A stretch of DNA of 64,000 nt, from assembly GCF_003399645.1 (NCBI RefSeq), contig NZ_NBXD01000018.1, positions 54,455 to 118,454 on the forward strand. Direction: 5' to 3'. The translations under genes were made by a program, and so were the position numbers. The stretch comes from Subtercola boreus (lineage in GTDB: Bacteria > Actinomycetota > Actinomycetes > Actinomycetales > Microbacteriaceae). This document shows, one piece after another, positions 19,081 through 23,932 of this stretch. Position 1 is the stretch's first letter. Each line of letters starts with the position of its first letter. The notes under the pieces were generated by a model. It was not told the DNA's origin. It worked only from the letters and a program-made list of their open reading frames with translations, and searched no databases.

Positions 19081-19947
19081 ATGTCGATCGCCGAGGGTTT
19101 TCCGGGCCAGCGCCTCCGCGTGCTTCCGCGGCCGATCATCACCGAGGCGTTGCAGCAACCGGGTACGTCGCACCTGGTGGCCACCGACTGCGGCTATTTT
19201 CCCGAGGCACGGGCGCACGGGATGTCGCGGGCGAGGCCCATCGAGCAGGCCGTCATTCTCATCTGTACGAACGGTCGCGGGTGGTGCCGCGTCGATGACA
19301 CGCAGCATTCGGTCGCAGAGAACCAGGTGGTCGTCATTCCCCCCGGCACCCAGCACGCCTACGGAAGCGATGCGACCGACCCGTGGACGCTGTGGTGGCT
19401 GCACGTCGACGGTCGTGACCTGCCCGAGTTCCTCACCGCCGCTCGCATGACCTCATCGGCACCGGTGCGCACGCTGGCCAACACCTACCGCGTGGTCGAG
19501 CTCGTCGAGGAGGTGTTGCAGCAGATGGAGGGCGACATCTCGACGGCGAGCCTGCTCGCGGCCTCCGGAGCCGCCTGGCATCTGCTCGCCGTGCTCGCCT
19601 CCAGCGCCACGTCGGCACGATCGCGTAACACCGTCGTCGACGAAGCGCGGGACTACCTGCGCAGCCATCTCACCGAGCGTGTGTCGGTCGCGGAGCTGGC
19701 AGCGCGGGCTTCCCTCAGCCCCTCGCATTTCGCGGCTCTCTTCAAAGAACACGTCGGCTTTCCTGTGCTGCAGTACCAGACCCAATTGCGCATGGCGCGG
19801 GCCCGTGAGCTGCTCGACACCACCAGTCTGCCGGTGGCCCGCATCGCGAACGCCGTCGGCTATCGCGATGAGTTCTACTTCTCAAGGCAGTTTCGATCTG
19901 TGCACGGCACGACGGCTCTTCGGTACCGCGCCCAGCACAAGGGCTGA
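19081..19947 (+). CDS. AraC-family transcriptional regulator
   Basis: 288-residue regulator. The N-terminal cupin-like sensor (~30-130) contains AVILICTNGRGWCRVDDTQ and VVIPPGTQHAYGSD, as in AraC arabinose-binding domains. The C-terminal ~100 residues carry two helix-turn-helix units: VSVAELAARASLSPSHFAAL and ARIANAVGYRDEFYFSRQFR, ending with the family signature. Divergent from the sugar ABC/DUF5107 operon, so it very probably controls it in response to the imported sugar. ATG 19081 is preferred; ATGs at 19006 and 19024 would extend it across the operator-like repeats. Confidence 0.9.
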   Translation: MSIAEGFPGQRLRVLPRPIITEALQQPGTSHLVATDCGYFPEARAHGMSRARPIEQAVILICTNGRGWCRVDDTQHSVAENQVVVIPPGTQHAYGSDATDPWTLWWLHVDGRDLPEFLTAARMTSSAPVRTLANTYRVVELVEEVLQQMEGDISTASLLAASGAAWHLLAVLASSATSARSRNTVVDEARDYLRSHLTERVSVAELAARASLSPSHFAALFKEHVGFPVLQYQTQLRMARARELLDTTSLPVARIANAVGYRDEFYFSRQFRSVHGTTALRYRAQHKG

Positions 19948-20001: not shown

Positions 20002-20028
20002 ATGTTCTCCTCTCCGGTTGACCTGTGA
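20002..20028 (+). CDS. 8-codon leader ORF (MFSSPVDL) coupled to fbiC
   Basis: ATG TTC TCC TCT CCG GTT GAC CTG TGA, starting 7 bases after the TAGACT box. Its stop codon overlaps the GTG start of fbiC in the string GTGA. No Shine-Dalgarno sequence precedes the fbiC GTG, so ribosomes finishing this ORF would be the natural source of initiation there. The peptide has no Trp, His or similar run, so a classic attenuator is unlikely; simple translational coupling is favoured. Confidence 0.45.
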   Translation: MFSSPVDL

Positions 20029-22382
20029 ACACGGGCGATGCCCTCACCGCTGTTCGTTCGGGCGTGTACCCCGACCCGGTGACCGCCGAGGCGCTCCTTC
20101 ACGCGCGAGGCGCCGAACTCGACGAGCTTCTCGCTGTGGCCGGCAGGCTCAGAGACGAGGGCCTGGAACGGGCGGGACGACCCGGGGTCATCACCTACTC
20201 CCGCAAGGTCTTCATCCCACTGACGCACCTCTGCCAGGACAGATGCCACTACTGCGTCTTCGTACAGTCCCCCGGCAGTCTCGCGCGGGCGGGAATCGCG
20301 CCCTACCTCTCGACCGACGACGTGCTGCAGATCGCCCGGCAGGGCGCGGCGATGGGCTGCAAGGAGGCGCTGTTCACGCTCGGTGACCGGCCGGAGAACC
20401 GGTGGCCCACCGCGAGGGACTGGCTTGACGAACACGGCTACGAGTCGACGATCGACTACGTCCGTGACATGGCCGAACGGGTTCTGGTGGAGACAGGACT
20501 GTTGCCGCACCTGAACCCCGGCGTGATGACACCGGCCGAGCTGGCGTCGTTGAAGCGCGTCGCGCCCTCGATGGGGATGATGCTGGAGACGACCGCGACA
20601 CGGCTGTGGTCGGAGAAGGGCGAGGCGCACTTCGGCTCGCCCGACAAGGAGCCGGCCGTTCGGCTCCGGGTGCTCGACGACGCCGGGCGTCTGAAGATCC
20701 CGTTCACCACGGGGGTGCTCGTCGGAATCGGCGAGACGCCCGCCGAGCGGGTCGACGCGATGTTCGCCATCCGGGCCTCCGCGGCCGAGCACGGGCACGT
20801 TCAAGAGACCATCGTGCAGAACTTCCGCGCGAAGGATTCGACCGCCATGAGGGGCGCCGGCGACCTCGCGACCGACGAGTACGTCGCAGCCGTGGCCGTC
20901 ACCCGGCTGGTGCTGGGGGCGGATGCACGGCTGCAGGCACCGCCGAACCTCACCGATTCGGCAGAACTCGAGCTGTTGATCCGCGCCGGGATCGATGACT
21001 GGGGCGGCGTGAGCCCCCTCACCCCCGACCACGTGAACCCCGAACGGCCGTGGCCGGAGATCGACGAACTGGCCCGCCTCACCGCGGCCGGCGGCTACGC
21101 GCTCAGGGAACGACTGACGACCCACCCGCACTACATCCGGGAAGGCGCACCCTGGCTCGACCCCGCTGTGCTGCCGTTCGTTCGAGCCCTGGCCGACAGT
21201 GCCGGGCTCGCTCGCGACGAGGGCACCCCTCTACAACCGGCACGTCTGCAGGGCACGGGTGCAGGCAGTTCAGCGTTCGGGAGGGTGCACGTCACAGTGC
21301 GCTCGACGGTCTCGATGGCACTCGAACGTGCGGAACGCTCGCCGTCCGCCCTCGCTGACGCAGACCTCACGGCGCTCCTGCGTGCGACAGGAGCAGAGCT
21401 TGATGCGCTGGCCACCCTCGCCGACGAGCTCCGGAGCTCCCGGTTCGGCGCCACCGTCAGCTTCGTGATGAACCGGAACCTCGATTCATCGCTCGTCGGG
21501 GACACGGATGCCGGCAGGGGCGGCGGTCGCGCCGGCGGCCTGACGCTCGCCGACCTCGGCGCCCTGGCCTCCGAGGCCGCAGCGCTCGGGGCCACCGAGA
21601 TCTGCATGCAGGGGCTCGCCCGCCCCGAGCTGGGCGCGTCGGCATACCGCGATCTCGTTCGCGCCGTGGTCGACGCCCAGCCGACACTGCACCTGCACGC
21701 CTTCCGGCCGGTCGAACTCGCCGACGGAGCGGCCCGTTCGGGTCTCGCGCTGCCGGAGCACCTCGCCGCCCTGGCGGAGGCGGGGGTCGGCTCCGTACCC
21801 GGAACCGGGGCCCGCATCCTTGATGACCAGGTACGCCAGACGATGACCGGCGGCCGCGACATCCCGGTCGCCGAGTGGCTGGACATCATCACGGCTGCAC
21901 ACCGGGCGGGTCTTCGCTCCACCGCCACCATGATCTACGGGCACATCGAGAGAGCCGACCAGATCGTGGCGCACCTGCGCACCGTCGTTGCAGTGCAGGA
22001 GCAGACCGGCGGGTTCACCGAGTTCATTCCGATGCCGTTCGTTCCCGCCGAGCATCCCGCGATGCCCGCGCACCTCACGGGCCGAACCCCCAACCTCCGT
22101 CGGTCGCGGGCCGTCATCGCGGTCAGCCGGCTGGTGCTCGACGATCACATCGGCCACATCCAGGCCGCCTGGACCAAGCTCGGCCCAGCCGGTGCGCTTA
22201 CGGTGCTGAACGGCGGCGCTGACGACCTCGGCGGTGTGCTTCTGGACGGGTCGCTCAACCCGGCGGCCGGTGCCGAGTCCGGTCGCCAGTTGAGCGCAGA
22301 CGACGTGGCCGGGTACGCCCGGAGGCTCGGTCGAACGGCGTGGCAGCGTTCCACGCTCTACCGACCGATCGAAACGAGGTGA
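20025..22382 (+). CDS. fbiC: FO synthase FbiC (CofG-CofH fusion) with a CofH half lacking its Fe-S cysteines
   Basis: 785-residue two-domain protein of coenzyme F420 biosynthesis. FbiC condenses tyrosine with 5-amino-6-ribitylaminouracil (CofH half) and cyclises the product to the deazaflavin FO (CofG half), each half using a radical-SAM 4Fe-4S cluster. The CofG half (~50-380) is intact: TYSRKVFIPLTHLCQDRCHYC with Cys70, Cys74, Cys77, then MGMMLETTATRLW and ETIVQNFRAK. In the CofH half the expected C-x3-C-x2-C after VSFVMNRNL is replaced by SSLVGDTDAGRGGG (about residues 488-500), with no Cys nearby. Later CofH blocks persist: ATEICMQG, LHLHAFRPVEL, MIYGHIE, GGFTEFIPMPF. The protein may be CofG-only, needing a separate CofH. 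Confidence 0.88.
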   Translation: MNTGDALTAVRSGVYPDPVTAEALLHARGAELDELLAVAGRLRDEGLERAGRPGVITYSRKVFIPLTHLCQDRCHYCVFVQSPGSLARAGIAPYLSTDDVLQIARQGAAMGCKEALFTLGDRPENRWPTARDWLDEHGYESTIDYVRDMAERVLVETGLLPHLNPGVMTPAELASLKRVAPSMGMMLETTATRLWSEKGEAHFGSPDKEPAVRLRVLDDAGRLKIPFTTGVLVGIGETPAERVDAMFAIRASAAEHGHVQETIVQNFRAKDSTAMRGAGDLATDEYVAAVAVTRLVLGADARLQAPPNLTDSAELELLIRAGIDDWGGVSPLTPDHVNPERPWPEIDELARLTAAGGYALRERLTTHPHYIREGAPWLDPAVLPFVRALADSAGLARDEGTPLQPARLQGTGAGSSAFGRVHVTVRSTVSMALERAERSPSALADADLTALLRATGAELDALATLADELRSSRFGATVSFVMNRNLDSSLVGDTDAGRGGGRAGGLTLADLGALASEAAALGATEICMQGLARPELGASAYRDLVRAVVDAQPTLHLHAFRPVELADGAARSGLALPEHLAALAEAGVGSVPGTGARILDDQVRQTMTGGRDIPVAEWLDIITAAHRAGLRSTATMIYGHIERADQIVAHLRTVVAVQEQTGGFTEFIPMPFVPAEHPAMPAHLTGRTPNLRRSRAVIAVSRLVLDDHIGHIQAAWTKLGPAGALTVLNGGADDLGGVLLDGSLNPAAGAESGRQLSADDVAGYARRLGRTAWQRSTLYRPIETR

Positions 22383-23932
22383 CAGAACCCCGCGAGGGCC
22401 CGCCGTCGGCCCTGCCGGCCGGGCCGGCCCCGCTCGTCGACGTGCTCATCGTCGGGGCAGGATTCGCGGGTATCGGCATGGGGCTCCGCCTCGAACGGGA
22501 AGGGCGCCACTCCTTCACCATCATCGAGCGCGCGGGCAGCGTCGGAGGAACCTGGCGCGACAACACCTACCCGGGCGTGGCCTCCGACATCCCCTCGCAC
22601 CTGTATTCGTTCTCGTTCCGACAGAACCCGCGATGGAGTACCCGGTTCGCCGCCGGCCCCGAGATCCGCGCCTACCTCGAACAGTGCGTGCTCAAGGGAG
22701 GCCTTCTTCCCCACCTGCGGCTGAACACGGAACTGCTGCAAGCCGAGTGGAATCAGGATGAGGGCTGCTGGGAGGTGGAGACCACGAACGGTGTCTACGC
22801 CGCACGATCTCTGGTCGCCGCGGCCGGGCGGCTCTCCGAGCCGAAGATCCCCGCCATCCCGGGCCTCGATTCGTTCCCCGGGCCGCTCTTCCACACCAGT
22901 CGCTGGCCCGAGGGAATCGATCTCGAAGGCCTTCGTGTCGGTATCACCGGCACCGGCGCATCCGCCGTTCAGATCATCCCGCAGATCGCCGAGAAAGCTG
23001 CCGGACTCGTGGTCTTCCAGCGGAGCGCACCCTACGTCGTGCCCCGCCTGAACCGCCGCTACAGCGTCAGGGAGAGAGAACTCTTCGAGTCACGACCCGA
23101 CCTCCTGGAGGCATCCCGCGACCAGGCGTTCCGGCAGGCTGAGGCCGGTTTCCCCAGCCGCCTCGGCACGGAGCCCGACCTCAGCGACCAACGCGCACGG
23201 TGGCGCAACCACCTCGACGCGCAGGTGGAGGACCCGGCCCTTCGCCTCGCCCTCACGCCGGACTACGTCTTCGGCTGCAAACGGATCCTCGTCTCCGACG
23301 ACTACTACCCCGCCCTCACCCTGCCCGGTGTCACCCTGGAGACCTCGGCGCTGGTGTCGATAGAGGGACGCCGCGTCGCCGCCCGGAACGGCCGCAGCCA
23401 CGACATCGATGTGCTCATCCTCGCGACCGGATTCCACTCCACCCAGCAGCCGTTCGCCGGGCGTGTCACCGGCCGGGGCCGTGTGCTGCTCGCCGATCAC
23501 TGGTCGAACGGGATGACCGCGTTCGCCTCCACCGTCGTCAGCGGCTTTCCCAACCTCTTCATCATCGACGGCCCGAACGCGAGCCTCGGTCACAATTCGG
23601 CGATCCACATGATCGAGACACAGATCGACTACATCCTCGGTGCCCTCGACCACCTCGCTCGTCACCCCGGCACCGACCTCGACGTGACGGCCGAGGCGGA
23701 GGCCGCCTACTCCCGCTCGGTCGACGAGGCCGCTGCCCGAACCGTCTGGCTGACCGGTGGCTGTCGGAGCTGGTACGTCGACGAGCGGAGCAACCGCCTC
23801 ACCCTGCTCTGGCCGGGTCTCGCAGAATCCTTCCGAACCCAGAACGGGATCTTCGACCCGGCGCCGTTCGACCCGGCCCCGGCGCCCGGCCGCGGCGAAG
23901 CCGACACCACAACCCACACCCCGCACACCTAG
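22379..23932 (+). CDS. flavin-dependent monooxygenase, Baeyer-Villiger type
   Basis: 517-residue class B flavoprotein. The FAD-binding site is VLIVGAGFAGIGMG (G26-x-G28-x-x-G31). The Baeyer-Villiger fingerprint FPGPLFHTSRWP lies at 166-177 and the NADPH Rossmann motif VGITGTGASAVQ at about 186-197; the ILATGF motif also follows. Such enzymes insert oxygen into ketones or oxidise hetero-atoms. GTG 22379 overlaps the fbiC stop (GTGA), so the two are translated together. That is unusual, since this enzyme class uses FAD/NADPH and not F420. Substrate unknown. The last ~15 residues are a Pro/Thr tail. Confidence 0.92.
   Translation: MTEPREGPPSALPAGPAPLVDVLIVGAGFAGIGMGLRLEREGRHSFTIIERAGSVGGTWRDNTYPGVASDIPSHLYSFSFRQNPRWSTRFAAGPEIRAYLEQCVLKGGLLPHLRLNTELLQAEWNQDEGCWEVETTNGVYAARSLVAAAGRLSEPKIPAIPGLDSFPGPLFHTSRWPEGIDLEGLRVGITGTGASAVQIIPQIAEKAAGLVVFQRSAPYVVPRLNRRYSVRERELFESRPDLLEASRDQAFRQAEAGFPSRLGTEPDLSDQRARWRNHLDAQVEDPALRLALTPDYVFGCKRILVSDDYYPALTLPGVTLETSALVSIEGRRVAARNGRSHDIDVLILATGFHSTQQPFAGRVTGRGRVLLADHWSNGMTAFASTVVSGFPNLFIIDGPNASLGHNSAIHMIETQIDYILGALDHLARHPGTDLDVTAEAEAAYSRSVDEAAARTVWLTGGCRSWYVDERSNRLTLLWPGLAESFRTQNGIFDPAPFDPAPAPGRGEADTTTHTPHT

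What the first reader, a model, noticed from the sequence alone, without database searches (positions are those of the whole stretch)
21456..21540. FbiC with no Fe-S cysteines in its CofH half
The N-terminal CofG half keeps Cys70/74/77, but the C-terminal CofH half has SSLVGDTDAGRGGG where the radical-SAM C-x3-C-x2-C should be. The rest of CofH (ATEICMQG, LHLHAFRPVEL, GGFTEFIPMPF) is conserved and the frame is continuous, so this is not a sequencing frameshift. Such a protein could cyclise but not form the tyrosine adduct. Either a separate CofH exists elsewhere, or this protein has a new role, using the second half as a substrate-holding domain.
Basis: partly seen in the sequence, partly recalled or inferred. 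Interest (0 to 1): 0.72.

Follow-up and report, generated by a model that had tools for sequence, protein, structure and literature searches.

The report
Oxygen-dependent stand-in for radical CofH
In Subtercola and other actinobacteria, the part of the F420-cofactor enzyme that normally holds an iron-sulfur cluster has lost that site and sits beside a gene predicted to encode a Baeyer-Villiger monooxygenase, which likely replaces the lost radical step with oxygen chemistry.

Summary
In detail: the only CofH found in this genome lacks the radical-SAM cysteines, while CofG keeps its own. It is not a local loss. Of 80 named CofH loci (a capped, similarity-ranked list), 44 lack the cysteines. All 44 have a Baeyer-Villiger-type monooxygenase gene downstream on the same strand; none of the 36 cysteine-bearing loci has one in the flanks held. 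Here the two genes overlap by four bases.

Of those 44 genomes, 42 show no second full CofH-like match, and all 44 keep a CofG with intact cysteines and an F420-type CofD. Cys-less CofHs are split from canonical ones by a single branch and the monooxygenases also group together, but their CofG partners do not (rejected, p about 1e-29). Most simply, the pair replaced radical CofH beside different resident CofGs several times. The Cys-less barrel is under purifying selection and has its own invariant residues.

Best reading: the pair does CofH's job without a cluster. The monooxygenase would make a 4-hydroxybenzyl ester, the barrel would add it to ribityldiaminouracil, and CofG would finish FO. 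Replacement of CofH is well supported; the chemistry is inferred.

The parts
20025..21239 (+). CofG (radical-SAM) half, approximate boundary; GTG start predicted
   Evidence: TIGR03550 472.8 bits over cut-off 213; tree
20232..20255 (+). intact CX3CX2C (Cys70/74/77) of the CofG half
   Evidence: translation
21336..22379 (+). Cys-less CofH domain; predicted intact barrel
21483..21539 (+). DSSLVGDTDAGRGGGRAGG in place of the [4Fe-4S] cluster loop
21705..21707 (+). Arg124 of the domain (numbered from 21336): R in 55 of 55 Cys-less, S in 38 of 39 canonical CofH
21948..21950 (+). Glu205: E in 55 of 55 Cys-less, D in 38 of 39 canonical
22245..22250 (+). Asp304-Gly305: class-specific (D in 52 and G in 54 of 55 Cys-less; E in 38 and 39 of 39 canonical)
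22379..23932 (+). partner gene, 517 aa, Baeyer-Villiger-type FAD/NADPH monooxygenase (predicted); GTG start predicted, overlaps the CofGH stop codon by 4 bases (GTGA)
   Evidence: profile of the group against PDB: steroid monooxygenase 2e-91, phenylacetone monooxygenase about 1e-87; predicted fold like cyclohexanone/phenylacetone monooxygenase
22874..22906 (+). BVMO fingerprint FxGxxxHxxxW (FPGPLFHTSRW)
   Evidence: translation; pattern recalled
23279..23284 (+). Lys301-Arg302 of the monooxygenase, aligned with the KR pair of steroid monooxygenase
   Evidence: alignment; GxKR in 44 of 44 partners
19081..19947 (+). AraC-type regulator upstream (not shown to belong to the system)

Best explanation
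The Cys-less CofH domain and the monooxygenase encoded just downstream likely form a two-protein, predicted oxygen-dependent replacement for radical-SAM CofH that would supply the intact CofG with its substrate for making FO, the core of cofactor F420. Shown: the gene pair and its strict linkage in the loci examined, the lack of a second full CofH-like match in 42 of 44 genomes, the retained CofG and F420 genes, and repeated changes of CofH type beside related CofGs. Inferred: the direction of those changes (pair displacing radical CofH) and that the end product is FO. Inferred and least certain, the chemistry: the monooxygenase would carry out a Baeyer-Villiger oxidation of a tyrosine-derived carbonyl (4-hydroxyphenylpyruvate, or 4-hydroxyphenylacetaldehyde) with migration of the benzyl group, giving a 4-hydroxybenzyl ester that readily loses oxalate or formate to yield a p-quinone methide. 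The Cys-less barrel would hold 5-amino-6-ribitylaminouracil and guide its C5 onto that electrophile, giving the same intermediate that radical CofH makes (my own formula count: diaminouracil C9H16N4O6 + quinone methide C7H6O = C16H22N4O7, the formula I derive for the CofH product), with no net redox change. CofG would then finish FO by its usual radical step.
For: 1) Linkage: 44 of 44 Cys-less loci have the monooxygenase downstream on the same strand (37 within 300 bases, 7 after a gap of 657-1475), 0 of 36 Cys-bearing loci in the flanks held (30 of 36 with at least 3 kb downstream). Among 60 relatives plus the own genome, cognate monooxygenases (over 780 bits) occur in exactly the 15 genomes with Cys-less CofH; other matches reach at most 588. 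2) Replacement: 42 of 44 genomes show no second full CofH-like match; CofG with CX3CX2C in 44 of 44 (38 at the locus, 5 elsewhere, 1 inside a canonical FbiC). 3) Pathway: F420 CofD over cut-off in 44 of 44 genomes and in 3 of 14 controls; own genome has CofC, CofD, CofE over cut-off and an FGD-family protein. 4) Exchange: Cys-less CofH is split from canonical by one branch (100/100; also without loop columns, SH-aLRT 100), cognate monooxygenases from 15 other BVMO-like proteins likewise, but their CofGs need 6 changes on the tree (6 forced) and grouping them is rejected, p-AU 9e-30. Nocardia sp. alder85J (G087) has canonical FbiC plus the pair; N. miyunensis (G095) has the sister CofG, no CofH match beside it, plus the pair. 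5) Constraint: dN/dS 0.15-0.36 for the Cys-less half over 7 pairs; new invariants. 6) The partner is of the steroid/phenylacetone/cyclohexanone monooxygenase type; phenylacetone to benzyl acetate is the recalled precedent for benzyl migration.
Against: No biochemistry: I saw no measurement of FO or F420 in these strains. Retained F420 genes alone do not prove FO synthesis: by Pfam-level matches 7 same-family relatives keep CofD and CofE with no CofG/CofH match at all (G011, G017, G019, G026, G031, G033, G035), and some in other families do too (for example G037, G040, G044, G046, G049, G053). The monooxygenase substrate is unknown. The recurrent neighbours were judged by eye only; one aminotransferase-like cluster occurs near 7 Cys-less and 6 canonical loci, so nothing tyrosine-specific is tied to the pair. 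The fingerprint fails in 5 of 44 (L116, L118, L150, L167, L172), a C-terminal GGCx[SA]W pattern is kept in only 25 of 44, and the monooxygenase of L118 reads in two frames. The fingerprint is also in 13 of 15 other BVMO-like proteins, so it does not mark this group. G087 carries the pair together with a canonical FbiC. The own CofGH lies on another contig than CofC/D/E. Changes on the CofG tree could be losses as well as gains of the pair.
Confidence: 0.7

Rival explanations
1. The pair plus CofG makes a different deazaflavin or another tyrosine/uracil-derived compound, not FO; F420, if present, would be a variant cofactor or come from outside.
For: Substrate of the monooxygenase is unknown; one genome (G087) has the pair in addition to canonical FbiC; several relatives keep CofD/CofE without any FbiC.
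Against: In 42 of 44 genomes it is the only full CofH-like match while F420-type CofD is kept in 44 of 44; repeated exchange beside related CofGs argues for the same product; F420-dependent G6PDH (over cut-off) directly follows the pair in G028.
Confidence: 0.13
2. CofG does both radical steps; the Cys-less CofH is only a substrate scaffold and the monooxygenase plays a side role (for example removing oxygen or re-oxidising a product).
For: CofG cysteines are intact in 44 of 44; the barrel is kept.
Against: The CofGs are not a special group: they interleave with CofGs of canonical FbiCs, so a CofG-specific gain of function would have to arise several times; a scaffold role does not explain a strictly linked monooxygenase.
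Confidence: 0.08
3. The Cys-less half is a decaying relic and the strains live on FO taken from neighbours.
For: At least seven same-family relatives keep CofD and CofE without any FbiC match, so FO salvage is plausible in this family; in two of them ABC-transporter-like genes overlap fbiA (by eye).
Against: One group spanning many families, purifying selection, class-specific invariants, intact CofG, strict partner gene.
Confidence: 0.05
4. The domain still binds a cluster and SAM through other ligands.
For: Fold is closest to the radical-SAM enzyme MqnE; PF04055 still scores 30.7 bits on this half.
Against: The cluster loop is largely deleted and the following QGG is QG[P/A/L/R] in 49 of 55.
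Confidence: 0.02

Closest known systems
FbiC / CofG-CofH (FO synthase)
   Same: CofG half, domain order, F420 gene set and, by inference, the product
   Different: CofH half has no [4Fe-4S] cysteines, scores below the CofH and CofGH curated cut-offs, and is tied to a monooxygenase
MqnE (aminodeoxyfutalosine synthase, PDB 6XI9/6XIG)
   Different: MqnE is a radical-SAM enzyme with its cluster site
Baeyer-Villiger monooxygenases: steroid, phenylacetone and cyclohexanone monooxygenase
   Same: profile matches at 1e-82 to 2e-91 (steroid monooxygenase over most of its length), predicted fold, fingerprint in 39 of 44, GxKR in 44 of 44
   Different: apart from the 15 other BVMO-like proteins compared; genetically bound to Cys-less CofH; substrate unknown
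Oxygen-dependent replacements of radical-SAM steps (recalled: HemF for HemN, AcsF for BchE)
   Same: same idea: an O2-using enzyme takes over a radical-SAM step
   Different: here the old barrel is kept and refitted instead of discarded

Membership tests
Bifunctional FO synthase FbiC/CofGH (NF006687) | score over curated cut-off 1018 | tested here: not met
   1008.1 bits
Bifunctional FO synthase FbiC/CofGH (NF006687) | CofG radical-SAM domain with CX3CX2C | tested here: met
   TIGR03550 472.8 bits over 213; Cys70/74/77
Bifunctional FO synthase FbiC/CofGH (NF006687) | CofH radical-SAM domain with CX3CX2C | tested here: not met
   loop replaced; TIGR03551 344.2 below 374.1
Bifunctional FO synthase FbiC/CofGH (NF006687) | makes FO | not testable with these tools
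   needs biochemistry
Radical-SAM enzyme (CofH half) | fold of the superfamily | tested here: met
Radical-SAM enzyme (CofH half) | cluster-binding cysteines CX3CX2C | tested here: not met
   absent in the window and in the 44 loci classed as Cys-less
Baeyer-Villiger monooxygenase (partner gene) | fingerprint FxGxxxHxxxW (pattern recalled) | tested here: met
   present in the window (translation); 39 of 44 partners in named loci
Baeyer-Villiger monooxygenase (partner gene) | sequence and fold similarity | tested here: met
   (model pLDDT 80)
Baeyer-Villiger monooxygenase (partner gene) | oxygenates a carbonyl with NADPH and O2 | not testable with these tools
   needs enzyme assay
F420 biosynthesis | CofC, CofD, CofE present in the own genome | tested here: met
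   over curated cut-offs TIGR03552 (126.1/105), TIGR01819 (331.7/257.45), TIGR01916 (226.8/180.65)

The most novel reading that the evidence does not exclude
An oxygen- and flavin-dependent, cluster-free first step of FO synthesis: a Baeyer-Villiger monooxygenase turns 4-hydroxyphenylpyruvate into 4-hydroxybenzyl oxalate, and a former radical-SAM barrel, stripped of its cluster and refitted with an anion-binding arginine, cages the resulting quinone methide and couples it to ribityldiaminouracil. This two-gene cassette has repeatedly displaced radical CofH across actinobacteria.
Probability: 0.35. Interest if true: 0.93.

Novelty: new variant of a known kind. Interest (0 to 1): 0.86.

Why it matters
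The 2021 FEMS review says that in all studied F420 producers FO is made by a universal mechanism with two SAM-radical domain enzymes (PMC8498797, passages seen). A natural, repeatedly adopted replacement of one of the two would break that rule. It would show a radical-SAM barrel turned to non-radical chemistry, correct some database entries named 'FO synthase' that lack the catalytic cysteines (Kineococcus and Actinomycetospora relatives), and could offer a less oxygen-sensitive route to F420. It is directly testable in E. coli.

Tried and rejected
A stand-alone CofH in the own genome: searched with the CofH model, none found. An assembly error: rejected, since the change is shared by the 10 same-genus FbiCs and 44 named loci. 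A decaying domain: disfavoured by dN/dS and new invariants; dS is near 0.8-1.1 in several pairs, so the ratios are rough. A single three-gene module with its own CofG: rejected. A recurrent extra gene: an alpha/beta-hydrolase-like gene lies between CofH and the monooxygenase in 6 loci (L089, L109, L114, L117, L134; L118), with shortened hydrolase-like frames in L108 and L111; the one tested (L089) is below the curated cut-offs; not general. A plasmid search (73 records, all under 60% identity) led nowhere. Published reports: no paper describing this appeared in the listings in the open PMC library; preprints and most subscription papers are not held. Of PMC8498797 I saw passages only; of the others only listings.

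Of the 36 Cys-bearing loci, 6 have under 3 kb of DNA downstream (L121, L129, L135, L143, L145, L158), and their whole genomes were not searched for the monooxygenase. The 44 genomes come without completeness values and include metagenome bins. In one search the answer does not name which three controls are over the cut-off. In one search only part of the first-look candidates of many genomes was scored (26 at most). In one search, 94 rows were used (55 Cys-less, 39 canonical) after dropping two duplicates and L135 (no anchor). L118 was dropped from the monooxygenase tree as too short. L028 and L178 were left out of the careful CofG tree. In G052 CofH is cut and was not classed. The 36% CofH-like second match in G075 was not examined. 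Trees are unrooted, so 'one group' means one side of a branch. Gene calls and starts are from my own script, not a standard gene finder, and most neighbour names were judged by eye. L107 and L135 are metagenome bins whose stated taxa are doubtful.

Full report
What is in the window. ORF 20025-22382 (+) encodes 785 residues in one open frame: a CofG domain (TIGR03550, 472.8 bits over its 213 cut-off) and a CofH-like domain (TIGR03551, 344.2 bits, below its 374.1 cut-off). CofG keeps Cys70/74/77. In the CofH half the cluster loop is replaced by DSSLVGDTDAGRGGGRAGG (21483-21539), while ATEICMQG, LHLHAFRPVEL and GGFTEFIPMPF remain.

Not a local oddity. A protein search of 60 relatives found FbiC in 10 of the 11 same-genus genomes; all ten lack the CofH cysteines. 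The same holds for two other genera of the family (G028, G036) and for stand-alone CofH proteins of two other families (G043, G050). Relatives with ordinary cysteines are G021, G051, G054 and G058; G052 is undetermined. The window's genus is Subtercola by inference: a 'same genus' genome (G008) is identical in its CofH half to a named Subtercola boreus contig of the same length.

The partner gene. Clustering the neighbourhoods of 21 loci showed one gene beside every Cys-less CofH and not beside the canonical FbiC of G021. Here it starts at 22379 and overlaps the CofGH stop by four bases (GTGA). The group matches Baeyer-Villiger monooxygenases: steroid monooxygenase at 2e-91 and phenylacetone monooxygenase at about 1e-87 by profile, and cyclohexanone/phenylacetone monooxygenase by predicted fold (model pLDDT 80). 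The window protein has the recalled BVMO fingerprint (FPGPLFHTSRW; translation), though 13 of 15 other BVMO-like proteins of the relatives have it too.

Test of the linkage. A scan of named genomes returned the best 80 CofH loci of a capped list. In 44 the CX3CX2C is missing (41 by pattern, 3 by eye) and in 36 it is present. The monooxygenase is found in 44 of 44 and, in the flanks held, in 0 of 36; 30 of those 36 have at least 3 kb downstream. In all 44 it lies on the same strand downstream of CofH, within 300 bases in 37 and after 657-1475 bases in 7. Among the 44 partners GxKR is found in 44, YPGxx[CS]D in 43, FxGxxxHxxxW in 39 and a C-terminal GGCx[SA]W in 25; the fingerprint exceptions are L116, L118, L150, L167 and L172, and L118 reads in two frames. 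In the 60 relatives and the own genome, the cognate monooxygenase (over 780 bits) occurs in exactly the 15 genomes with Cys-less CofH; the next match scores 588 (which scored only part of the candidates in many genomes).

It stands in for CofH. The own genome has no other CofH. Of the 44 named genomes, 42 show no second full CofH-like match; the exceptions are G087 (Nocardia sp. alder85J, with a complete canonical FbiC as well) and G075 (an extra 36% match that I did not examine). CofG with intact cysteines is present in 44 of 44: 38 at the locus, five elsewhere in the genome, and one inside G087's FbiC. F420-type CofD is over its curated cut-off in 44 of 44 and in 3 of 14 control genomes (the answer does not name the three, but three of the six controls that ring are archaea). 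CofD lies within about 1.5 kb of CofGH in G062, G064, G065 and G077. A cluster of F420-dependent G6PDH-like proteins occurs near 11 Cys-less and 2 canonical loci; in G028 such an enzyme (466 bits, cut-off 420) directly follows the monooxygenase. The own genome has CofC, CofD and CofE over cut-off and an FGD-family protein (286.7 bits to the F420_G6P family, cut-off 210; below the G6PDH equivalog cut-off), on another contig.

How it evolved. The 55 Cys-less CofHs are split from 39 canonical ones by a single branch (100/100), also when the loop columns are left out. The cognate monooxygenases are likewise split from 15 other BVMO-like proteins. Their CofGs are not: the partner label needs six changes on the CofG tree, all six forced by well-supported branches in the careful tree, and holding them together is rejected (p-AU 9e-30). 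CofGs of Gordonia/Williamsia sit with those of canonical Nocardia/Rhodococcus FbiCs, and CofGs of two Kineococcus with those of canonical FbiCs, K. xinjiangensis among them. In Nocardia two stages may be visible: alder85J has the whole FbiC plus the pair, while N. miyunensis has the sister CofG with no CofH match beside it, plus the pair. The tree counts changes, not their direction; the plainest reading is that the pair travels as a cassette and has displaced radical CofH beside resident CofGs several times. I take this as the strongest evidence that the pair feeds CofG.

Mechanism (inferred). According to the review, CofH fragments tyrosine to a p-hydroxybenzyl radical that adds to ribityldiaminouracil and is then oxidised, after which CofG cyclises the product, and in FbiC the intermediate appears to pass by diffusion (PMC8498797, passages). 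Net, CofH adds a 4-hydroxybenzyl cation equivalent. A p-quinone methide would give the same intermediate without radicals. Baeyer-Villiger oxidation of 4-hydroxyphenylpyruvate or 4-hydroxyphenylacetaldehyde with benzyl migration, as phenylacetone monooxygenase does for phenylacetone (recalled), gives a 4-hydroxybenzyl ester, a known kind of quinone-methide source (recalled). The new basic residues (Arg124; Arg, Lys or Gln at 160 in 54 of 55 where canonical has Glu) could hold the leaving carboxylate; their place in the pocket was not measured. I put about 0.7 on 'the pair replaces CofH' and about 0.35 on this exact chemistry.

What speaks against it. No product has been measured. By Pfam-level matches, seven same-family relatives, and some in other families, keep CofD and CofE with no FbiC match, so downstream genes alone do not prove FO synthesis. 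G087 has both systems. The substrate of the monooxygenase is a guess, and no neighbour that I could recognise by eye ties tyrosine handling to the pair.

Novelty. No report of this appeared in the listings of the open PMC library searches; the library holds no preprints. Relatives of the Cys-less protein stand in databases under names such as 'FO synthase' (for example Kineococcus rubinsiae, whose locus L120 is Cys-less).

Noticed in passing
L083 3039-6850; L085 17876-20000: In two relatives that keep CofD and CofE but have no FbiC match (G017, G031), an ABC permease and ATPase (FecCD-like, judged by eye) run directly into fbiA with overlapping genes, and a binding-protein-like gene precedes them in G017: a candidate importer of FO or a related deazaflavin. 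Not seen beside fbiA in G011, which also lacks FbiC.
   Followed up: partly
L089 11696-12352, L109 8140-8997, L114 8116-9015, L117 8017-8766, L134 3398-4150; also L118: An alpha/beta-hydrolase-like gene (below curated cut-offs in L089, the one tested) lies between Cys-less CofH and the monooxygenase in these loci, with shortened hydrolase-like frames in L108 and L111; it may act on an ester made by the monooxygenase.
   Followed up: partly
L181 (G087) and L199 (G095): Nocardia sp. alder85J carries both a complete canonical FbiC and the Cys-less CofH/monooxygenase pair; N. miyunensis has the sister CofG with no CofH match beside it plus the pair: a possible before-and-after of the displacement.
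   Followed up: partly
L081 6440-13032 (own genome, contig C8): F420 gene neighbourhood: FGD-family protein, CofE, CofC, CofD and a second luciferase-like protein, on another contig than CofGH.
   Followed up: yes
proteins P0111 and P0112: CofH-like proteins of 571-577 aa listed with a TetR DNA-binding domain (PF00440) as well as CofH domains.
   Followed up: no
L107 and L135: Contigs labelled Acidobacteriaceae and Melainabacteria carry CofG/CofH genes that group with actinobacterial ones; probably misbinned metagenome contigs.
   Followed up: no
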